Of a stretch of 64,000 nt of DNA, positions 9,107 to 62,401 are shown in pieces. Below the pieces are notes generated by a model, which saw only the letters and a program-made list of their open reading frames with translations, was not told the origin of the DNA and did no database searches. Within the stretch, counting starts at the first letter, position 1. Each line of letters opens with the position of its first letter. The DNA is from Blakeslea trispora (taxonomy: Eukaryota > Mucoromycota > Mucoromycetes > Mucorales > Choanephoraceae). The stretch spans positions 444,001-508,000 of the forward strand of contig JAIWNE010000008.1 in the NCBI GenBank assembly GCA_025331445.1, written 5' to 3'. Made by a program: the position numbers and the translations under genes.

Positions 9107-9180
9107 GCCCGGTTGGCCCAATTGGATAAGGCATCCGTCTTCTAAACGGAAGATTACGGGTTCGACCCCCGTACTGGGTT
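9107..9180 (+). tRNA. tRNA-Arg(TCT): tRNA-Arg (anticodon UCU)
   Basis: A complete 74-nt cloverleaf without intron. The acceptor arm is GCCCGGT (9107-9113) paired with ACTGGGT (9173-9179), including G-U pairs. The anticodon loop is CTTCTAA inside the stem TCCGT/ACGGA, which gives anticodon TCT (reads AGA). The T arm contains GGTTCGACCCC, which doubles as the B box. CCA is not encoded. Confidence 0.95.
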
Positions 9181-21236: not shown

Positions 21237-22436
21237 TTAAATAGTAATAGTATTGTCATTATCGCCTTCATTGTGAATGATCGATCGAAGGATGTCACAT
21301 CTTCTTTCAAGCATGCCCAAAAATCCTTCCATTTGTTGAACAGACATACGAGAGATTAATGCTTTAAATCTAGTATCATCATGTTGGCCAGAAGGCTCTT
21401 CAGGTTGTCGTTGCAAAGGCTGTTGAATAGAAACAGTTTCATTTGAGTTAGGTGCTGTAGCACCAGGAAAAACCAATTGTTGTTGGTGTTGTTGTTGGTG
21501 GTGGTGCTGTTGTTGTTGTTGGTGTTGTTGGTGCTGTTGCTGAAGTAAGCGTTGAATTTTATTAGACTCATCGCTTTGGTTGTCTTCAATCATGGCATCT
21601 GTTGAGTTTCTCTTTTGGCCGATTATGGGAATAGTCGCCAACAAATGACAAGTGCTACAAACTGTCTGACCAGCGTCATTCACTATTGTAGGATGTGCTT
21701 GATGGCAGCATTGGCAGAGAGATTTGTTTTGTTCTTCAGTTTGTTCGTCTTGATACAAGTCAATGCTCATTGGCATTATCTTGTCTTGTTGTGGAGAAGA
21801 TGGGGCAGTGCTGAGGGTAGCAGCAGCAGCGACAGCAGCAATATTGATGGCATGCTTTGTCTGGTTTGACTGATGTTTTTGACGAATATGAAGGGGACGA
21901 TGTGTGTTGTACTGCTTGTAGTACAATCCACAGGCGTTACAAAGAGAATGAGCACGGTCTGGGGTACGGCGCCAAAGGGGAGTTTTGGTGACATGGCAGT
22001 TGAAGCATTCCATTTGGCGTTGAGCCCGGACGGGTTTGTGAGTAGACTTGTTCTTTTTCAAAAGCTCCATCTTTTCTTCTAAATCTTGTTCTTTATTATC
22101 TTCTTGAATCATATTTTCTTCTTCGAACTGAACAAATTGATCCAGTCCATCTTGTCTTGAAGAGAAGTGTTCAGAAGTAGAGGACAAATGCTGTAAAAAC
22201 GGATGATCTAGCAAATTAACCATATCATTGCTGCTGTTTTCACGAGAAAGATCTTGATCGCTTTGATGGGAATCAACAGACAGTGTAGGAGAGGGAAAAG
22301 TACTGAAATCTTGAACATGAGAAGCGGATGATGGCTCAAATTGCAATATATCAGAGAATGCGTTCTTGTCAAACAAGTCAGTTTGAACATCGCTGTTGTC
22401 GCCCAAGTGATGCAGCATGTAATTGTCACCCTTCAT
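21237..22436 (-). CDS. GATA-type zinc-finger transcription factor
   Basis: Intronless frame of 399 aa. A single GATA finger, C-x2-C-x18-C-x2-C, spans residues 144-169 ([18 protein letters not shown]..), followed by the basic tail [17 protein letters not shown] that contacts DNA. The x18 loop is shared by AreA/Dal80-like GATA factors at x17 and by Ash1/photoreceptor-type at x18. A second cysteine cluster, C-x2-C-x15-C-x2-C at 241-263 ([14 protein letters not shown]), lacks the WRR core. The N-terminus is acidic and Ser-rich, suggesting an activation domain; residues 299-320 are a Gln/His tract; a short helix near the C-terminus could mediate dimerisation. Which pathway it controls cannot be read from the sequence. 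Confidence 0.9.
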
Positions 22437-22857
22437 AGCTGAAAACCAACAAGAGAGAGAGAGAGTCTAAAGAAACAAGAAGGTTTAAAGAAACAAGAAG
22501 TGGAGTAATCAGGGAAGCAAAGAAAAAAAGAGAAGTTCTCGTCTTTTAATCTTTCAAAGAAAGAAGAGTGAGTGTGGCTAGCGAGCTTATATCAAAACAG
22601 TAAGAATAAAAAATATTAGTTTTTCGAACTGCATTTGCGTACCCAAGTCTTTTTTTTTTTTTGGCGGACCTGACATGCCTGGGAGAAACTCCGGTCCTAA
22701 TAATTCATTTCATTGGATCATGTAATCCAATCAGATCAAAAACTTGTGACGGCCTTTTAAACCTACCTCACGCTTTTTAAGGTTCTGGTTTATCTGAGTA
22801 AAGAGGTGCCTTGATCATTTTACTTCCTTCAGTTTCAGTAAAACGGATAAACGCACA
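22437..22857. other. Intergenic between GATA factor and transposase relic
   Basis: About 420 bp. It contains GA-rich leader sequence next to the GATA gene and a T13 run near 22650. No gene is seen. Confidence 0.5.
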
Positions 22858-24358
22858 ATGCTTTTAAATAAGGAGATCTCAAAAAAAAAAGAGCATTCTT
22901 TCAAGTATCCAAAACATATGGTCAAGGCTGAGGAAACCAGTGTCTTTACTGTTCTTTATACTGTCAAAAACGAATATGAGGAGGTTGTGCAGCAATTTTT
23001 AGTTCCTTCTAAGGCATTGAGCTACCTTCAATTTTCGTTTGAAAAAAAAATACATGAGGCGTATTCGTTGCATAGTCATAAAATGCCAATCACTTTCTTC
23101 ACTGACAATGTAAAGGGTGATAAAACCTTTCTCGAAGGCATTTTTGAATCATTGAAAGTCAATATAAAATTGTTAGTGAGAAAAGCAACTCTGGCACCAT
23201 CAAAATCTTAGTAACCAGATTAGATATCCCTGGGTTTATTATAAGCTTCAATACAAATAGTTTTAGCAACAATTAAAAATCATTGAATTCTTTTGGCCCT
23301 GTTCCTTTCGAGTTAGACAACTTAATGAAGGACTTAGTGATTGAAGCAGGCTTAGAAGCTAGCAACTTTAGCGAAAGTACAGTGCTCGAAGTAGCGCCTG
23401 CTCAAGAGAGTGTTGATAGGATATTAAATAGCAGCCACACAGCTTCTGAATCTGAGATCGACGAAGCTTTTAAGAAAGTCTTTGATGAAAGCAACGATAT
23501 GGTAGACAAAGACAGTTAGTTTAACATATAAATCTTCTAAGGGAGAAATTTGAGTTGTATAAGGCAAAGAACAATATATATATATTGATATCAATACATC
23601 AAAATACAAAAGCTCTAAAGAATTTTTTTGGCATTTTTCTCTTTGCCTAAAGATGAGATGCCCAAGCTTGGAATATCCAAAGCAGAAAAAGGCTTTCAAG
23701 ATACAGATGAGGATTTCAACGGTACCTAAACTTTGCGATATTGTGTATATAGAGATCGGCTCCACAAACCGTCTAAATAACAATAGTTACAGTTGTGTTC
23801 AAGCTGCAAAATACTACGTTTGCTGTTGTTGCTCTGCACAAACTAGAGGAAATGTTTTTTCTTCTGTCGTCTCTTGGAGAAATTCTGCCTTGGTAGTATC
23901 GCACCGAGTTTCAAAAGCTTTGCATTCGAATGACTTGCAAGCAGATGACAACAAGACTGCTGAACTTGTCGGGGAATACTAAAACCATTGAAAGGATCAG
24001 GGACAGCCAAAAAACTTGCCAAAACCACCATTTGATACTTGAAAGCATAGTCGATGAGATCAGAAAGAAGGAAATGCTCCACCAGACGGAAAGAGTAGTA
24101 TTGTCAAGCATTCCTAGTTTGCACCAAAGCATAAGCTCTCAAGAAGCCTATGTTATTCCTCAGCCAGATCAGTACAGAACCTCGATACCCCACTTCTTTC
24201 CTTTTCCCTTTCAAGTACAAAATATACCGTTTGCATTTAGAATGCCCATTCCCATCTTAGCCCTTGAAGTTTTGACTCCATTGAGTTCTGCTGCTATTTT
24301 ACCTCATCCAGGTACTTTAAGCATTCATGCATCACTAAGCAGTGTTGTATATATATGA
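22858..24358 (+). pseudogene. Decayed DDE-type DNA transposase relic
   Basis: Plus-strand fragments in several frames. The first (22858-23211, 117 aa) contains VFTVLYTVKNEYEEVV, a Leu-rich linker, ITFFTDNVKGDKTFLEGIF, a pattern seen in DDE transposases of fungal elements where TDN carries a catalytic Asp. It then hits stops. Further open pieces follow at 23283-23519 (acidic), 23640-23730 in a shifted frame, and 23930-24358 (proline-rich tail). The order and spacing fit one protein of at least 450 aa broken by frameshifts and stops. No terminal repeats could be found. The transposase call depends mainly on the TDN block; the exact superfamily is open. Confidence 0.45.
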
Positions 24359-25460: not shown

Positions 25461-25701
25461 CATGACAACATAAGCATTAGTCATACATGCCTAAACATCA
25501 ATTGCGGTAGCAGAAAAAAAAAAGGGAGAGAGAGAGAAAAAAAAGAAAAAGAAAAAGAAACACAGCAGGTGGAACGTGAGCATTGTTTGTGTGCATGTCT
25601 AATGGATTATGAATTCTGACAAAGATTTCGGGGTGTACAAAGGATTGCCAATTTTAGTATTTTCTATACCCCGCATGCACTCAGGAAGATCAAGAAAGAA
25701 G

Positions 25702-25772
25702 CGAGCTTACAGAGCAACGAGAGCAATGAGAGCAATGAGAGCTTACAGAGTTTGCAGAGTTTGCAGAGCTTG
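25702..25772 (+). repeat. Eight 9-bp AGAG-type tandem units upstream of the hydrolase gene
   Basis: Units begin with AGAG (first CGAG) every 9 bp: CGAGCTTAC, AGAGCAACG, AGAGCAATG twice, AGAGCTTAC, AGAGTTTGC twice, then AGAGCTTG. They end about 50 bp before the TATA box. The mirror copy is at 28514-28584. They could be an array of factor sites or simple slippage. Confidence 0.75.
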
Positions 25773-25823
25773 TTTCCTTTTTTGACTTTTTTTGTACTCT
25801 TTTTTTTTTTTTTTTTCAAATGA

Positions 25824-25831
25824 TATAAATA
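25824..25831 (+). promoter_or_regulatory. TATA box of left hydrolase copy
   Basis: TATAAATA, 79 bp before the ATG, preceded by a T18 run. The same box is present in the right copy (28455-28462, minus strand). Confidence 0.6.
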
Positions 25832-25909
25832 CAATCGACATTCTCTTTGTCTTTCATTCAATCAAACAATCACTTCTTCTTCTTCATCTTCTTCTCTTCT
25901 AGCTGAACA

Positions 25910-26602
25910 ATGCGTTTCTCTCTTGCTACTGCTTTCATCGGCGCTGCTGCCTTGATCTCTTCCGTCACTGCTGACCTCTACAACCGTCTTGATTTGAGCG
26001 ATGCTGCTTTCTTGTTTGTCGATCACCAAACTGGTCTTCTCAACTTGGTCCGCGACTACCACCCTGACGCTTACCTCAACAGCGTCATGGGTCTTGCTGA
26101 AACCGCCAAGTACTTCAATGCTACCACCATCTTGACTACCTCTCGTGAAGATGGCCCCAACGGTCCTATGCTCCCTGCCCTCAAGAAGATGTTCCCTGAT
26201 GCTCCCTACATTGCTCGTCCTGGTCAAATCAATGCTTGGGATAGTGAAGAGTTTGTCAAGGCTGTCAAGAAGACTGGCAAGAAGCAATTGGTTATCTCTG
26301 GTATTGTTACTGATGTTTGTGTTACCTTTGTCTCTTTGAGTGCTCGTAAAGCTGGTTATGAAGTCTTTGTCGTTACCGATGCCTCCGGTACCTTTGACGA
26401 AGCTGTCCGTACTGCCTCCTGGATGAGAATGCAAGAAGCTGGTGTTCAACTCGTAAACTGGTTCAGTGTTGCTTGTGAATTGGCTCGTGACTGGCGTACT
26501 GACATTAACGGTTTGGCTGCCTTGTTCTCTAAGCGTTTGATCTCTTACTCTCATGTCATTGACTCTTTCAATGGTGCTCAAGCCGCTATTCAAGCCAAAT
26601 AA
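25910..26602 (+). CDS. Secreted YcaC-type isochorismatase-fold hydrolase, copy 1
   Basis: 230 aa, no intron. Residues 1-21 (MRFSLATAFIGAAALISSVTA) form a signal peptide with a V-T-A cleavage site. The rest follows the bacterial YcaC family closely in block order: AFLFVDHQTGLL with Asp38, ILTTSREDGPNGP, YIARPGQINAW, and GIVTDVCVTF with the nucleophile Cys137. The fold hydrolyses amide or ester bonds in small molecules; the true substrate of YcaC proteins is not known. Codon bias is strong, pointing to high expression. The gene is identical to copy 2 and faces it across a 767-bp spacer. Bacterial origin by transfer, followed by addition of a signal peptide, is an inference. The minus-strand 261-aa frame over it is a codon-bias shadow. 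Confidence 0.92.
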   Translation: MRFSLATAFIGAAALISSVTADLYNRLDLSDAAFLFVDHQTGLLNLVRDYHPDAYLNSVMGLAETAKYFNATTILTTSREDGPNGPMLPALKKMFPDAPYIARPGQINAWDSEEFVKAVKKTGKKQLVISGIVTDVCVTFVSLSARKAGYEVFVVTDASGTFDEAVRTASWMRMQEAGVQLVNWFSVACELARDWRTDINGLAALFSKRLISYSHVIDSFNGAQAAIQAK

Positions 26603-26759
26603 GAATCTTAGAACCACAATCAAAGCATAAAGAACTATAAGTATCATAAGGGCATAGAAGCTCCCTTTCTATTTAAATTCATGTTATTGTTATCATTATC
26701 ATTATAATAAATTATTTATTTGACCATAAGAAAGAAAAAAAAAAGACTTTGCTCTGAGT

Positions 26760-27526
26760 TTATTTGCTACTACATCTTTTCTGTTTGACTTCCTCTTGTT
26801 TAATTTTTTTTTACACAATGTAAGCATCATTTCTGAAGATAGTTTGAGCTCTAAAATAAAAAGAATGTGGCAGTAAGAACCAAGAAGTCCGTATTAAAGA
26901 AAATTAAGGTTGCTTGCTTTCAAGTCCAAACTGCTTAACTTCGCAGTTTTAGATATTTTGTTCATTGCAAAGTAATGATTCCTAACTTAGATTTATGAAA
27001 GTGGAACTATTTCAAGCTGATCAAATTTTATCTTATTCTGTATTCTGCATCCCAAAGTCACTTACAAAATTATCGTAGTACCATCGTACCATTCTTAGCA
27101 TTTATTTCTCTCAATTCGGTTCACTCCCAAATCCCACGGCATTGTATTTTTTTTTTTTTCAGAACTTGTTCTGCTTTATTGATAATATCATTACCGACGC
27201 TTAGGCTCGTACCAAATTGACCGTTTTCTTTATATTTAACTTATTTTGACACTTCTTGTTTCAGTTGACAAAACTAAATTTATCTAAAGGCAAGACTAGA
27301 TGGAAAAGGCCATAAACATCGTAAGTTTACCAAAATGAATTCGGAACTGAATATCATTGATTGGATAAAAGTGCACCATAGAGTCCGAGTTAATAAAGAT
27401 GATCAGATGAAAGATATTCATTTAGTTGTGCAATTTAGACAATTTCTCTTTTACATTGAAACAAATTTGAAACAGCCATGAAAGCAACATACTTGATCAT
27501 TGTCATTCTTTTTGCTTTAATAATGT
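26760..27526. other. Unique spacer between the inverted arms
   Basis: 767 bp, AT-rich, without a gene-like frame on either strand. It receives the 3' ends of both convergent hydrolase genes and would form the loop of a read-through hairpin RNA. Confidence 0.7.
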
Positions 27527-28825
27527 ACTCAGAGCAAAGTCTTTTTTTTTTCTTTCTTATGGTCAAATAAATAATTTATTATAATGATAATGATAACAAT
27601 AACATGAATTTAAATAGAAAGGGAGCTTCTATGCCCTTATGATACTTATAGTTCTTTATGCTTTGATTGTGGTTCTAAGATTCTTATTTGGCTTGAATAG
27701 CGGCTTGAGCACCATTGAAAGAGTCAATGACATGAGAGTAAGAGATCAAACGCTTAGAGAACAAGGCAGCCAAACCGTTAATGTCAGTACGCCAGTCACG
27801 AGCCAATTCACAAGCAACACTGAACCAGTTTACGAGTTGAACACCAGCTTCTTGCATTCTCATCCAGGAGGCAGTACGGACAGCTTCGTCAAAGGTACCG
27901 GAGGCATCGGTAACGACAAAGACTTCATAACCAGCTTTACGAGCACTCAAAGAGACAAAGGTAACACAAACATCAGTAACAATACCAGAGATAACCAATT
28001 GCTTCTTGCCAGTCTTCTTGACAGCCTTGACAAACTCTTCACTATCCCAAGCATTGATTTGACCAGGACGAGCAATGTAGGGAGCATCAGGGAACATCTT
28101 CTTGAGGGCAGGGAGCATAGGACCGTTGGGGCCATCTTCACGAGAGGTAGTCAAGATGGTGGTAGCATTGAAGTACTTGGCGGTTTCAGCAAGACCCATG
28201 ACGCTGTTGAGGTAAGCGTCAGGGTGGTAGTCGCGGACCAAGTTGAGAAGACCAGTTTGGTGATCGACAAACAAGAAAGCAGCATCGCTCAAATCAAGAC
28301 GGTTGTAGAGGTCAGCAGTGACGGAAGAGATCAAGGCAGCAGCGCCGATGAAAGCAGTAGCAAGAGAGAAACGCATTGTTCAGCTAGAAGAGAAGAAGAT
28401 GAAGAAGAAGAAGTGATTGTTTGATTGAATGAAAGACAAAGAGAATGTCGATTGTATTTATATCATTTGAAAAAAAAAAAAAAAAAGAGTACAAAAAAAG
28501 TCAAAAAAGGAAACAAGCTCTGCAAACTCTGCAAACTCTGTAAGCTCTCATTGCTCTCATTGCTCTCGTTGCTCTGTAAGCTCGCTTCTTTCTTGATCTT
28601 CCTGAGTGCATGCGGGGTATAGAAAATACTAAAATTGGCAATCCTTTGTACACCCCGAAATCTTTGTCAGAATTCATAATCCATTAGACATGCACACAAA
28701 CAATGCTCACGTTCCACCTGCTGTGTTTCTTTTTCTTTTTCTTTTTTTTCTCTCTCTCTCCCTTTTTTTTTTCTGCTACCGCAATTGATGTTTAGGCATG
28801 TATGACTAATGCTTATGTTGTCATG
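27527..28825 (-). repeat. Inverted duplication, right arm (1,299 bp)
   Basis: Mirror of 25461-26759. The inner edge breaks at ACTC (27527-27530), the outer edge after CATG (28821-28825). No target-site duplication or terminal motif of a mobile element was seen at the outer edges. Confidence 0.95.
27684..28376 (-). CDS. Secreted YcaC-type isochorismatase-fold hydrolase, copy 2
   Basis: Identical 230-aa protein to copy 1, including the signal peptide, Asp38 and Cys137, with the same promoter elements and 3' sequence. Convergent orientation means that transcripts running through the weak AT-rich end and the spacer would contain both senses of the gene. The absence of any coding difference implies a very recent duplication, ongoing gene conversion between the arms, or an assembly artefact. 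Both copies look intact, so dosage increase is possible. Confidence 0.9.
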   Translation of the reverse strand: MRFSLATAFIGAAALISSVTADLYNRLDLSDAAFLFVDHQTGLLNLVRDYHPDAYLNSVMGLAETAKYFNATTILTTSREDGPNGPMLPALKKMFPDAPYIARPGQINAWDSEEFVKAVKKTGKKQLVISGIVTDVCVTFVSLSARKAGYEVFVVTDASGTFDEAVRTASWMRMQEAGVQLVNWFSVACELARDWRTDINGLAALFSKRLISYSHVIDSFNGAQAAIQAK

Positions 28826-31156: not shown

Positions 31157-34156
31157 CTACCGAAATGAAGTCGTACGCACTAAACGAGAATAAGCAGATG
31201 AAATACTTGTACTTGTGGTATGACGATCAATAATCCAATCGTGTTTTAGTGCTTCGCGAGGGGTCAATCGCTTTGAGGGGTCCCAGCATAAACATCGTTC
31301 AACAAAGTTTATGAATACATCGTCATTACACTTGAGTGCTTGTCGAAGTGATCGACTGCCTGGCATACGTTTTTTCCCCTTTGAGTTGGGCACGATACGT
31401 GGTTGTCCAAGGACATCTAGACAGGGGTTAGCGAAAAAGAATTCGTTTTCTACTCTCAACATACCGAAAAACAGGTGTCTTCTTGAACATCGTTCCACTA
31501 GGTGTTTATCGGGAAGGCCCATGACCTCCATAATGCAGCTCAATTGTTCTTGCTCATTTTCGCCAGGAAATAAAGGCATACCGGTATATAGTTCTGCAAC
31601 AATACAGCCAACACTCCACATATCAATTGATTTGTGATAAGAAAGACCCAATATAACCTCGGGTGATCGATAAAATCTACTTTGAATATAGGTATAGACT
31701 TATGGAAAGAAGTTGTGAGTAAACCATCTTCTGTTTCACGTGACATCAATTTACCTCTTTCTGACTCTAAACAACTGCTGCCAAAATCAATCACTTTAAT
31801 TGTACTTTTAGCAGGATGTTTCAACATAATATTCTTTAAAGGAAATTAGAAATCATCAAATAATGATAGCAAAATAACCATCTTACCTCTGGCTTCAAAT
31901 CACAGTGAATCACATCATGATTGGCCAACATGAAGAGTGATTGAAGGATTTGTGTGATCATTCTATTCCCGAAAAATAGAAAGAGAGGTTAAATATTTGT
32001 AGGATAAACATAAGTTGCAACTCACTTTCTAATTAAACCAAGGCTGAACCCTCTAAAATGATTGGACTTGATGAATTCATATAGATTCATGCTTAAACAT
32101 TCAAATGCGATACAGAGGTGATTCCTAAAATGGAAATAATCAACCATACGAATGGTGTGGTGCAAGTCCTCTGGATCCCATTCAATGAGTTTCTTTAGAA
32201 TATTGATTTCAGTGATTCCTTGTGCGTGAAAACGCTTCTTGTTTCGGATCAGTTTGATAGCCACACGATTGCCTGTTTTGTGATCATAGCATTTGACTAC
32301 CTGACCAAACGATCCACGCCCTAACAGATCCAATATTTCGTACCGATAGGCCAAATGATCTTGTTTCACAACTTTGTAGTTACCATGCTCATCATCAAAG
32401 CCATGGTTTAATTCGCTTGTGCCCAAACCATACTTTGTCTGTGCATGAGGACCCACAAAATAGATGTCGCTAAAGTTGTAAATCTCAATCTGTCGTTCAT
32501 AATCTGACAAGTATTGGCCGTAATATTTCAATGAAGCTTCTGCACTTTTAGGTGACCGTGTTGCTCCTTCGACAAATGGATCGTTGGTTGTTGCAGCTGC
32601 CTTTGCATAGAGTGCTTCTATACTATCATGATGACTGGTTGTGCTCTGAAGACTGCTTTGGTTGCTGTTAGCAGAATGATTGTTAATTGGAGGGGGTATA
32701 TGGCTCTTGCCTTTATCTTTGGGCTTTGCATGTAGTATGGGATCGGAAGCGCTTATTTTAGATGATTTAAAGAAACTGTCAGATGCAGTTTGTTCTGTCA
32801 GGGCAGATAGCTTGAGTCGATTTTTACTGGTGGAAGGTGTTGTAGATGTACTCTGTCTAGGTGCTGGTTTCTTGGGTTGTATATTAGTAGGAATTGTCAA
32901 TTGAATAGGGTTTAATGTCATGGGTGGTAAATTAAGTGTTAATGATGGTGGAGGTGTAGCCAGACTGCCAGGTAAGGTCTTTATATAAAAACTAAGTCAA
33001 TTTCTTTCTCTTTCTCTCTCTCTCTCTCTTTTTTTTTTTTTTTAATTATTACCTTTCCTCTTTTACGACCTAATGTTGTCTGTTTATTTTCTAATGTTTG
33101 ATTTGCTTCTTCTTCTTGTTTTGATTTCTCTTGAGGATTCTCTTCTGCTTTGCCATCTTTTAGTTGTTTTGCTTTAGTTTCAGCCGCCACCAGCAGGTTT
33201 GAATGCTTGTCTCGTTGAATCTCTAATGCACGGATATCTTTCTCAATCAAGGCCAAATCATGACTGATATTCTTTGCGTATTCAGCTGTCGATAACTTTC
33301 GATGGAGACATGTTGTGTTGTCAGATGACTTTTTGAGACTACTTTTTCGAACAGGCGCAGTAGCCATCTGTTTGAGTGAACTTGTACGGGTGTTCATCTG
33401 TTGAAGTTTAGGTGCAGAAGGTAAAGGAGGTACTGCTGGTACAGAAGATGCAGCCAGACTGCTTGTGCGTGGTGGAGGTGGAGGTGAATAGGTAAAAGAT
33501 CGATGCTTCTTTTGATTCACATAACCCTGATAATCCGCTAGTCCATGGGCACTACTGACAGTCGACTGAGGAAGTGGAGGAGGTGAATTGGATTGTTTGC
33601 GTCGACTGGCAGCCAAGGCACTCGATGAGACTGAGCGTCTCGGCTTGGGATATGCATTCGTATGATTTGTTGAACTTAAACTTAGTTTTCGTTTGATTTT
33701 GTGTACGAAAGGCATGATGGATCGTTTTTCAGGCAATTGAGGTGGTTGATCCGAAGGCACGGGAGGAGGAGGAGAATGTAGTTTTTTAGAATGTTCACGC
33801 ATGGATTTAGATTTATGAATCGATAGAGGGCTCTTTTTGACAGGAGAGGCTGTTTGAATTGCTCTACGGTGAGATTGTTTGGGTGGTAATACAGGAGGAG
33901 GTGGGTAGGAGGTATTTGGATCAGATTGGCTGACGATACAGTCTTTATTATGATGATGATGAAGCCAATCTTGCTCACTATGGGTAAGTAAGTTTACAAA
34001 AGAAGGTAATCTTTTGGCTGATCCTGTAGTCCATTCTGGACTTATTGTGTTTGGCTTTGCATAATAAATATGAGGAGATGAGTGATGACGGCCATGCGTT
34101 GTGGTGGATCGAGTGAGTGGAGGTAGTTCTTGATGATAGAAGGATTCTGATGACAT
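31157..34156 (-). CDS. Class II DYRK protein kinase (Pom1/DYRK2-like)
   Basis: Dual-specificity kinase. Six exons join in frame: 34156-33053, 32978-32026, 31962-31887, 31833-31755, 31698-31465 and 31416-31157, giving 901 aa. Residues 1-370 are disordered with poly-proline runs (possible SH3/WW ligands), basic stretches and a coiled-coil near 290-350. Next come a NAPA-like block ([24 protein letters not shown]) and a DYRK-homology box ([20 protein letters not shown]), which mark class II DYRKs. The kinase domain shows [34 protein letters not shown], and an activation loop [13 protein letters not shown] with the autophosphorylated second Tyr. The tail after the kinase domain is short. In fission yeast Pom1 sets polarity and cell size; the role here is inferred from the family only. 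Confidence 0.93.
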
Positions 34157-35510
34157 GATCCCGGTTTACAAAAGAATTAGATATAAGGTATATTACAAAA
34201 TAAATAAAATAAGAGAAAACAACAGAATACACTGTTTCCCTTTTTTTTCTTTTTTCTTATTGCTTAAAGAGGAAAGGGAGTAAGAAAGGAGCGTCTGTTC
34301 AATAAAGTGTAATAATAATAAAAAAAGGACATAAAAGGTGGTAAACTTTTTTTTTTTTAAGTACTGATTTCGGGACTTTATTTTCGGTTGGGAGATTTCC
34401 TTTTTTGGATCTACTTCTTTTTCTTTTTTTCAAATGCCTCTCCTCTCTTTCTTCTATCCGTCTAAATTAGGAGAAAGCAAGAGAAAAAGGGAGAATTGGG
34501 TTCAAAAAATAGTTTTCGGAGAGCTTTAATGCCCTTCTTTAGGATACAAAGCCATTAGAATGGTATGTCTTAAGGGTTAAAGAAAACCTTTTTCTAAAAA
34601 AAGAAAGAAAACCTTAATTCAATACAATACTATTGCTTATATTGCCTGCAAGCTATTTCCATATTGCAAATAACAATAAAAAAAAAGGACCTTGTGAATA
34701 CTGCAGTAACTCCTTGCAAGACAATAAAATGGACTCTTTGTTTATGACAAGCTCTATTGTTTTCTTTACTTCTTTGTTCGTACAATTAATTGCATTCTTT
34801 ATTGAACTTAGTCATTGAAAGTTATGTATGGGTTAAGAGGATTTGTTTTTGTTTTTAGAAAGAGATTGAGCTGAAATAACTCTTCAAGTCAGCGCACAGA
34901 CCTTACGTAGGGCCACACAAAGACGATTCTTGACGACTGATTTGATTGTGTTTTCTAATAATGTTACACATAGAAACAATACATTTGGTTTGTTTGATAA
35001 CAGTCTCTATTGCCCTCTCAAGCCGATTGAGTGGTGGGCATTCTTTGGTTGGCTTGTACCAACAGGATGATGGTTCTCTATTTCTTTAGAAAGGTACATC
35101 TCTAGGACAGTATTAAAGAAAGAGCGGGGCAAGATACATCACTGTATTGAATTGGTTCATAGAGTACGAGGATAAATCAGACTTGAGGGGGGTCTAGGTT
35201 AGGCTCTTGTAACCCGCATTCACTTTCAAATATCCTTACTATTTGCTTGTGTTGCCATTCAGAATTTTAGGACTAAATTAAAAGGTCACTTTGTCTGCTT
35301 GAAAAAAATTACCTTTTTGAAGCTCTTACATATTTAGATGTAGTCCTGCTTCAGGCAAAGATCCTCTCCAACTATCTATTTAAAAGTCCGCGATTTTTTG
35401 GGTAAAAAAAAAAACCTCTCATGCAAAAAAAGAATGAAATGCACAGTTTTTTTTTTTTTAAAAACCGATATCTTTTTTTTTTCTATATATCTGACATTAT
35501 TGAAATAACC
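34157..35510. other. Intergenic between DYRK kinase and PPxY protein
   Basis: About 1.35 kb containing both upstream regions of divergent genes. It has A/T runs and a long pyrimidine stretch near 34400-34460. No gene is supported. Confidence 0.5.
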
Positions 35511-47918: not shown

Positions 47919-48070
47919 CAAACTTTGAAGAGCTTCACAGAAAAACTTTTGCAGGCAAAAACAAAATCCAACCTTTTAATGTTGTTTTAAATATGTTTTA
48001 GAACAATGTTAAAAGTTTAGAATTTTTTTTTTGCCTGCAAAAGTTTTTCTGTGAAGCTCTTCAAAGTTTG
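47919..48070. repeat. 152-bp near-perfect palindrome (MITE-like hairpin)
   Basis: Left arm CAAACTTTGAAGAGCTTCAC.. (from 47919) pairs with the right arm ending ..GTGAAGCTCTTCAAAGTTTG (48070); paired positions sum to 95989. About 42 bp per arm pair perfectly, and the inner part (CTTTTAATGTTGTTTTAAA against its mate) pairs with a few mismatches, so the whole element folds back. No coding content. It sits immediately upstream of the degraded gene at 46314-47860. Confidence 0.85.
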
Positions 48071-60600: not shown

Positions 60601-61834
60601 CCCTCATCCTCCTCCAGCAGTTGTACCTCAGTTTGATTTTAACCTCAATCCTCAGTTTATGGTCCCTCCAAATCATCCAAATCATCCTCATCATCCTCAT
60701 CATCCTCATCATTTACCCCATCCTCACTCTACATTAAATCAGGCTGCTCCTATGCCTCCTCCTCCTCCTATGAGTATGTTTATGGGTAACCACATGATGA
60801 TGCGATCTATGCCTCCTCCTCCCGAAATGCTTTCGCCCTTCCATCCACAGCCTCATCCTCGCCATGCGTCTCCACTATCCTCTTCCATGGTTTCTCCGCA
60901 ACGACAGCAACAATCGCCTTACCCTCCTATGAGACAACAGCAGCACAATGCAATGGATCAGATGAGAAATGAGTTCAATGAGCTGCAGATAAACGGCGCA
61001 TCCAATTCGTCGACTCCTGCTCCCGAACAGCAAACCCGTGACGATCTTCGCGCCTTACTACCCAATGTCAATATCAGCTTTAACAACTTTCAAGAAAAAG
61101 TCAAAGCAGAGGAGTTCTATCAAAAGCAATTATTGGTACAACGCCAACATCAACAACAACAGCTACATAAGCAACTGTCTGAGCAACAAGACCAAATACC
61201 CAGCCCTCGCAGTTTATCGAGAGACTCTCTTGTGATGCCAAACAATGCAGCACCTTTATCGCAACTACAGCAACAACAACCAGATGAGAAGCTTTTGCCA
61301 AGTGATATGGCCTCGGCTCAGAGTAGCCCAGCTATATCCTCTTGGCAACAAGACGAGCAGAAAGCCGATCCTGATGTTCGTGTGGAAGCACAGAATTTCT
61401 TTGGTGAATTTCTTCGCAAAGCAGCTTCTCATCAACATCAAGATTTACCCTCCAAAAAGGAAGAACAGCTCTCAGTGCAGCATGGTATGTATAGCACATC
61501 ATTCATTCTTTTATATTGTTCATTTTGCTTATTTCATTTTTTATTGCTTTTTTATGTTCCAGTATCATCGGCCTCTCCTTTACCTTTTCAAGACCCTGCG
61601 ATTATGTCAATTCGCTTGGCTGACAGCCAAAATGCATCCGGTGGCAATCACCCTGTTCCTGAGAATGGAATTACTCACTCTCAAAACACTATTCTTCAGA
61701 TTTTAGGCGGTCAATCGTCTCCTTTGATGACTGTTGAGCAACAGCAACAACAGCAACAGCAACAACAACAACAGCAACAGCAACAACAGCAACAGCAACA
61801 GCAACAACAGCAACAGCAACAACAGCAACAGCAA

Positions 61835-61881
<47 letters not shown>

Positions 61882-62401
61882 ACAACAACAACAACAGCAA
61901 CAACAGCAACAACAACAACAGCAACAACAGCAGCAACAGCAACAGCAACAGCAGTTATATTTTAATCAGCAAATGCAACATCGCCAACAACAGCAACAGC
62001 AACATCAGATGGATCTTAGATTGAACAATGATTTAACTCATCAAGAGTTTGGTTATGGTAGCGATTTGGGTCCAAAGCCGTTCAACAATGTAATTGTGAA
62101 TCCTTCTCTTCCATTCCAGCAGCAGCAGCCTCAACCATTTCATAATGCTCCCCGACCTTCTTTTATGTCTGGCTTTAGGGAGCTCCCTATGAACATGATG
62201 GGTCATATGCCACCTCCCCCACATCATCACCCAAACATGATGGGGGCACCTATTCCACCTTCACTTCACCCCATGGGATTCCAAAATAACAATTATCAGG
62301 CTCAACATCCTCACACACAACAACAAGGGCCTTATTCACCCCACCATCATCCTCCCCCTCCCCCTCCTCCAGGCATCTTTGCAGAAGAAAACCGTCCATA
62401 A
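57631..62401 (+). CDS. NOT4: CCR4-NOT ubiquitin ligase Not4, with a long polyQ C-terminus
   Basis: E3 ligase of the CCR4-NOT complex, acting in co-translational quality control and mRNA decay. Exons 57631-57726, 57844-58107, 58214-58386, 58529-58684, 58810-61484 and 61563-62401 join in frame to 1,400 aa. Residues 10-53 are the C4C4-type RING (CPLCMEELDIADRNFRPCPC..CRFCW..CPACR). An RRM follows (about 105-185, LVYVLGLG..GINGMEYDGKTIR), then a C3H1 zinc finger (KYCTYYLRHMSCPNPNCMYLH). The remaining 1,150 residues are disordered, with Pro/His/Met-rich segments and 72 consecutive Gln (61739-61954). Yeast Not4 has 587 aa, so this is greatly extended. The 78-nt intron 61485-61562 is in frame and stop-free, so retention would add a hydrophobic stretch. 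Confidence 0.95.
61739..61954 (+). repeat. CAA/CAG tract encoding 72 glutamines in NOT4
   Basis: 216 bp of mixed CAA and CAG codons with no other codon. On the minus strand it creates a spurious poly-Leu frame and in another frame a poly-Asn/Ser frame. Mixed codons make it less prone to slippage than pure CAG. Confidence 0.95.

What the first reader, a model, noticed from the sequence alone, without database searches (positions are those of the whole stretch)
25461..28825. Perfect 1.3-kb inverted gene duplication that can make hairpin RNA
Two identical copies of a whole transcription unit (promoter, secreted hydrolase, 3' end) lie in convergent orientation around a 767-bp unique spacer. No difference was seen over 1,299 bp. 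The palindrome should be unstable, so identity implies very recent origin, gene conversion, or selection. Read-through transcripts would fold into dsRNA; Mucorales have RNAi, including epimutation, so the locus could be a self-silencing switch or a natural small-RNA source. An assembly artefact must be ruled out.
Basis: partly seen in the sequence, partly recalled or inferred. Interest (0 to 1): 0.8.

Follow-up and report, generated by a model that had tools for sequence, protein, structure and literature searches.

The report
Identical mirror-image pair of hydrolase genes
A mould genome carries two letter-for-letter identical, mirror-image copies of one enzyme gene; this looks like a known kind of duplicated gene pair, either new or kept alike by copying between the copies, and nothing in the sequence shows that it acts as an RNA silencing switch.

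Summary
Two arms of exactly 1,299 bp (25461-26759, 27527-28825) are 100% identical, inverted and convergent, around a 767-bp spacer found once in the genome. Each arm holds a complete-looking gene: TATAAA, an intron-less 230-aa YcaC/isochorismatase-type protein with a signal-like N-terminus, and AATAAA. The genome matches Blakeslea trispora (Mucorales); no other copy or close paralogue was found.

New evidence: Gilbertella persicaria, of another subfamily, has two near-identical copies (1 of 230 residues differs). This favours an old pair kept alike by gene conversion, as proposed for Caenorhabditis inverted gene pairs (PMC1803023). But the arms end abruptly without decayed homology and other Mucorales show lineage-specific duplicates, so a recent duplication is nearly as likely. 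Orientation in Gilbertella could not be seen.

RNAi genes exist, but each copy has its own poly(A) motif and codon bias suggests strong expression. A self-silencing hairpin is possible but unsupported. An artefact is unlikely, not excluded. New member of a known kind.

The parts
25461..26759 (+). Left arm: complete-looking gene copy 1 (promoter region, CDS, 3' end)
   Evidence: Exact 1,299-bp inverted repeat with 27527-28825
25824..25829 (+). TATAAA, 80 bp upstream of the ATG of copy 1 (mirrored in copy 2)
   Evidence: Read directly; promoter role inferred
25910..26602 (+). CDS copy 1, 230 aa, YcaC-type isochorismatase-family hydrolase with signal-like N-terminus, no intron
   Evidence: the signal peptide is judged by eye, no predictor run
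26706..26711 (+). AATAAA motif of copy 1; antisense-oriented motifs start at 26715 and 26759
   Evidence: use as a poly(A) signal is inferred
26760..27526 (.). Unique spacer, 767 bp, 31% GC, longest ATG ORF 48 aa, found once in the genome; AATAAA at 26855 and 27392 (+), 27101 and 27175 (-)
27527..28825 (-). Right arm: gene copy 2, identical to the left arm
27684..28376 (-). CDS copy 2, identical 230-aa protein
21240..22436 (-). Left neighbour: GATA zinc-finger protein gene whose homologues share a contig length with the hydrolase gene in Choanephora (548331) and Gilbertella (603135)
31157..34165 (-). Right neighbour: DYRK/Pom1-like kinase gene (several exons, joined by eye); in Parasitella a kinase homologue and a hydrolase homologue share contig length 219353

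Best explanation
This is a real inverted duplication of one strongly expressed gene for a probably secreted YcaC-like hydrolase. Shown: two complete-looking identical units in convergent orientation around a unique spacer, and no other copy or close paralogue found in the genome. Inferred: the pair is inherited (present before the Blakeslea/Choanephora and Gilbertella lineages split) and is kept identical inside each species by arm-to-arm gene conversion. Its effect is two equal doses of the same enzyme, each copy ending at its own poly(A) site; no hairpin RNA is needed to explain it.
For: Exact arms, found at two places only. Gilbertella persicaria proteins P0003 and P0004 differ at 1 of 230 residues; both are listed with longest contig 603135, the length also listed for its GATA homologue P0125, the left neighbour of the pair here. 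The contig-length key checks out on three contigs of this genome: 615157, 373209 and 33316. In the tree of 24 proteins the Gilbertella copies a and b pair with each other (98/91), not with the window and Choanephora (100/99): the pattern of concerted evolution or of separate duplications. Codon bias suggests high expression: ENC 34.0 and CAI 0.59 against the neighbouring P-type ATPase, versus 44.7-55.5 and 0.16-0.30 for four other gene pieces. Precedent: inverted gene pairs in Caenorhabditis, divergent and convergent (PMC1803023).
Against: Orientation and spacing of the Gilbertella copies are unknown; they share a contig of 603 kb, and adjacency is not shown. P0004 is listed on two contigs and P0003 on one, and two proteins 99.6% alike are listed apart in a database clustered at 90%, which I cannot explain. 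A third Gilbertella homologue (P0009, 77%) lies elsewhere. In the same tree Mucor velutinosus a/b and Pilaira a/b also pair within species although listed on different contigs, so lineage-specific duplication is common in this family and separate duplications are credible. The arms end abruptly with no decayed homology outside, which one recent event explains more simply. Noncoding parts of the arms show little or no GC rise over the flanks (0.356 and 0.261 versus 0.348, 0.312 and 0.333). Choanephora's copy number is unknown. Its kinase hits lie on contigs 100125 and 204640, not 548331, and no Gilbertella kinase is among the 22 hits listed, so right-side synteny is not shown in either.
Confidence: 0.43

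Rival explanations
1. A very recent inverted duplication private to this strain or species, for example by template switching during replication; the copies are identical because there has been no time to diverge. The Gilbertella pair would be an independent duplication.
For: 0 differences in 1,299 bp, sharp ends, no decayed homology beyond the arms and no relic copies in the window. Other Mucorales show species-specific pairs of this gene (Mucor velutinosus, Pilaira).
Against: Requires separate near-perfect duplications of the same gene on the same GATA-linked contig in two subfamilies. The junctions show no clear template-switch signature (longest word shared by any two of the four 60-bp flanks is 8 bp).
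Confidence: 0.4
2. Assembly or polishing artefact: a single gene written twice, or two slightly different copies flattened to identity.
For: Read depth and the sequencing method could not be seen; polishing could hide small differences.
Against: A read-through chimera would give abutting arms with inverted outer flanks (recalled); here the outer and inner flanks differ and the 767-bp spacer was found once. The window holds no N.
Confidence: 0.11
3. A functional hairpin locus: read-through transcripts fold into a 1.3-kb duplex that Dicer cuts, tuning or switching off both copies.
For: One Piwi-domain locus, two RdRP loci, one gene with two RNase III domains (Dicer-like) and one with a single RNase III domain are in the genome; the arms are perfectly complementary.
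Against: AATAAA near the 3' end of each arm, further AATAAA motifs in both orientations between the genes, and high-expression codon usage. In Fusarium, transcription past a terminator in a convergent construct was not detected (PMC3733888, passage). The arms are what any whole-gene inverted duplication would give.
Confidence: 0.05

Closest known systems
Conserved inverted paralogous gene pairs of Caenorhabditis (HSP16 locus T27E4; F44E5.4/F44E5.5), PMC1803023 (abstract, first of two parts of Results, Discussion read)
   Same: Inverted gene copies, arms including noncoding DNA up to 100% identical, unique spacer of a few hundred bp, within-species identity above between-species identity
   Different: There the structure was compared in three species; here the second species is known only from proteins and contig lengths. 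The HSP16 locus holds four genes, this one two
Human Y and X palindromes with arm-to-arm gene conversion (PMC3723533, PMC8981503; listing and start of abstract only)
   Same: Inverted arms over 99% identical
   Different: Large palindromes on sex chromosomes, with GC-biased conversion reported; no clear GC rise is seen here
Mucor circinelloides ico1, isochorismatase with predicted secretion and YcaC as named homologue (PMC6428757, passages)
   Same: PF00857, YcaC-like, secretion predicted
   Different: Orthology with this gene was not tested; no inverted pair is mentioned in the passages seen. The ico1 deletion mutant formed colonies as healthy as wild type after phagocytosis
Hairpin-RNA and convergent-promoter transgenes in Fusarium (PMC3733888, abstract start and passages)
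   Same: Inverted or convergent copies able to give dsRNA on read-through
   Different: The lines and constructs that the passages describe as silencing lacked terminators; here each copy has its own AATAAA motif

Membership tests
Actively maintained inverted paralogue pair (type of PMC1803023) | Inverted paralogues with near-identical arms that include noncoding DNA | tested here: met
Actively maintained inverted paralogue pair (type of PMC1803023) | Same inverted structure at the orthologous place in related species | tested here: inconclusive
Actively maintained inverted paralogue pair (type of PMC1803023) | Within-species identity exceeds between-species identity | tested here: met
   Proteins only: 230/230 here, 229/230 in Gilbertella, 83% between
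Natural hairpin siRNA locus | RNAi machinery in the genome | tested here: met
Natural hairpin siRNA locus | One transcript running through both arms | not testable with these tools
   No RNA data; the AATAAA motifs speak against it
Natural hairpin siRNA locus | Small RNAs from the arms | not testable with these tools
   No small-RNA data
YcaC-type isochorismatase-like hydrolase | PF00857 domain above the curated cut-off and similarity to YcaC structures | tested here: met
   68.5 bits against a cut-off of 27; 1yac E 1.8e-84, 4wgf E 1.3e-87
YcaC-type isochorismatase-like hydrolase | Catalytic Asp and Cys conserved | tested here: met
   D38 and C137 invariant in the 24 aligned proteins; their catalytic role is recalled, not from a call
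Mobile element | Many dispersed copies or target-site duplication | tested here: not met
   Two places only; the two flanks of copy 1 and of copy 2 share no direct word longer than 6 and 7 bp within 60 bp

The most novel reading that the evidence does not exclude
The convergent pair is an old palindrome kept through the Choanephoraceae not only by gene conversion but because rare read-through hairpin RNA feeds the RNAi pathway and lets the fungus damp or epigenetically switch off both copies of this abundant secreted enzyme at once.
Probability: 0.04. Interest if true: 0.75.

Novelty: new member of a known kind. Interest (0 to 1): 0.34.

Why it matters
If the same convergent pair is confirmed in Gilbertella, it would be a clean fungal case of an inverted gene pair whose structure outlives its sequence, in an order with well-studied RNAi. 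It would allow direct measurement of conversion rate and of whether such pairs ever make small RNAs. If it is a private recent duplication it is ordinary.

Tried and rejected
Mobile element: rejected, because the unit was found at two places only and shows no element features.

Other long palindromes as a genome-wide habit or a sign of artefacts: none among the 264 kb compared, about 0.7% of the genome.

Relic or third copies near the pair, or older arm remnants: none found in the window. A family search found two further isochorismatase-domain places in the genome, C46 (two pieces) and a weak fragment on C68; the protein search with this gene did not report them at E <= 0.001, so they are at most distant members.

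Gene or RNA in the spacer: no ORF above 48 aa from ATG and no Rfam match at the gathering threshold (the only window match is a tRNA at 9107).

GC-biased conversion footprint: not seen (no statistical control).

Right-flank synteny in Choanephora and Gilbertella: not shown. Parasitella shares a contig length, 219353, between a kinase and a hydrolase homologue.

Paper searches: 18, 19, 33, 34 and 50 asked for inverted or convergent gene pairs; 37 for Mucorales small RNAs and dsRNA; 41 for genomes of the family; 51 for secreted isochorismatase. I saw listings and abstract starts, capped in some (15 of 35 papers, 12 of 35, 12 of 627). No fungal case of this kind was among those shown. The library is open-access only, so this does not show that none is in print.

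For the latter I moved the odds from 0.45 / 0.38 to 0.43 / 0.40.

Full report
Observation. The repeat finder's 1,304-bp arms include two mismatches at the inner edge. The outer flanks show no clear similarity to each other, nor the spacer to its own reverse complement (best local scores 25 and 26; no shuffled control was run). In the genome the spacer was found once and the arm twice.

What each arm holds. A 230-aa reading frame without intron (25910-26602, and 27684-28376 on the other strand) has a hydrophobic N-terminus that looks like a signal peptide (by eye; no predictor was run). It matches Pfam Isochorismatase PF00857 at 68.5 bits against a cut-off of 27. By sequence its nearest solved structures are a 'probable hydrolase' (4wgf, E 1.3e-87) and YcaC (1yac, E 1.8e-84). 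Each arm has TATAAA 80 bp before the ATG (read) and AATAAA 103 bp after the stop codon (26706). The arm ends about 50 bp past that motif, so each is a complete-looking gene. Codon use is biased towards that of the neighbouring P-type ATPase gene (Pfam E1-E2 ATPase; I call it an H+-ATPase from memory): CAI 0.59 and ENC 34.0, against 0.16-0.30 and 44.7-55.5 for four other gene pieces. Two of those pieces include one stop codon because exon ends were taken by eye. I take this as a sign of strong expression.

Family in the genome. A search with the protein finds only the two copies at E <= 0.001 (3 candidates scored). A search with the Pfam family finds the two copies plus C46 (two pieces) and a weak fragment on C68. 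So the gene has no close paralogue that was found here, but the domain family has other, distant members.

Which organism. A protein listed as Blakeslea trispora BD560DRAFT_368675 (P0223) matches the genome at 350 of 350 residues on contig C135, whose length, 373209, is the one listed for that protein. C119 has length 33316, as listed for another Blakeslea protein. The window's own GATA protein is listed with 615157, the length of C264. This also shows that the 'longest contig' column can serve as a contig fingerprint.

Relatives. Of the 120 homologues listed (of 7,961 found), the nearest is from Choanephora cucurbitarum (92%), then two from Gilbertella persicaria (83% each). The latter two differ only at residue 93, and both carry longest contig 603135. 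The left neighbour gene (GATA) hits Choanephora on 548331 and Gilbertella on 603135, the same lengths as the hydrolase contigs. In Parasitella a hydrolase homologue and a kinase homologue share 219353. I compared these lengths by eye over 120, 120 and 22 listed hits. So the locus appears syntenic, and Gilbertella (Gilbertelloideae), against Blakeslea (Choanephoroideae), also appears to carry two near-identical copies on it. Caveats: P0004 is listed on two contigs, the two proteins are listed apart in a database clustered at 90%, and a third Gilbertella homologue (P0009, 77%) lies on another contig.

Tree. It holds 24 proteins: the query and 23 of the 120 listed, chosen to cover named Mucorales and one Umbelopsis. 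The two Gilbertella copies join each other (98/91), and the window joins Choanephora (100/99); ten of 21 inner branches are open. That is what gene conversion within species, or separate duplications, would give. Mucor velutinosus and Pilaira copies also pair within species although listed on different contigs, which shows that this gene duplicates readily. No DNA of these relatives could be read, so orientation and spacing there remain unknown.

Recent or maintained? For an inherited pair: the Gilbertella copies. For a recent duplication: abrupt ends, no decayed homology next to the arms, no relic copies in the window, no clear GC rise in the noncoding parts of the arms, and the readiness of the family to duplicate. 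I put the inherited pair slightly ahead (0.43 against 0.40). The work most like this is PMC1803023 (abstract, first part of Results, and Discussion read). It found inverted gene pairs in C. elegans, including a convergent HSP16 locus with 100% identical arms and a 414-bp spacer. Their structure is conserved among Caenorhabditis species (the HSP16 repeat lost in C. briggsae), and the authors offer gene conversion and selection for structure as explanations.

RNA silencing. The genome has one Piwi-domain locus, two RdRP loci, a gene with two RNase III domains and a further gene with one (exon-wise six-frame search, lower bounds). But a hairpin needs one transcript through both arms. Each unit has its own AATAAA, further AATAAA motifs lie in the spacer in both orientations (26855 and 27392 on +; 27101 and 27175 on -), and antisense-oriented motifs lie inside the 3' ends of the arms (26715 and 27566). 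No shuffled control was run for these short motifs in AT-rich DNA, and no RNA evidence was available. In a Fusarium convergent construct, transcription past a terminator was not detected (PMC3733888, passage). I therefore rate this reading at 0.05.

Artefact. The typical palindromic read artefact gives abutting arms and inverted flanks (recalled), which is not the case here. No gap lies in the window. Over the 264,000 bases compared (7,500 of them withheld), no second inverted pair of separate arms was seen with an alignment of 150 or more at E <= 1e-20. Read depth could not be checked, and polishing may have removed small differences.

Verdict. A tidy and probably genuine example of a known kind: an inverted gene pair with identical arms. 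It becomes more interesting only if the convergent arrangement is confirmed in Gilbertella or if small RNAs are found.

Noticed in passing
   Followed up: no
window 61686-62044: Array of short imperfect repeats (steps of 9-15 bp) about 360 bp long, perhaps a low-complexity coding tract.
   Followed up: no
window 22798-23211: Open frame of 137 aa (117 from ATG) on the + strand between the GATA gene and the pair; not identified.
   Followed up: no
window 9107-9180: tRNA-Arg (anticodon TCT), the only Rfam match in the window at the gathering threshold.
   Followed up: no
window 47919-48070: Self-complementary stretch of 152 bp, 88% identical to its own reverse complement, found in the self-BLAST.
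   Followed up: no
genome-wide: Only one Piwi-domain locus was found here, whereas a review passage names ago1, ago2 and ago3 in Mucor lusitanicus (PMC8072676); the six-frame search is a lower bound.
   Followed up: no
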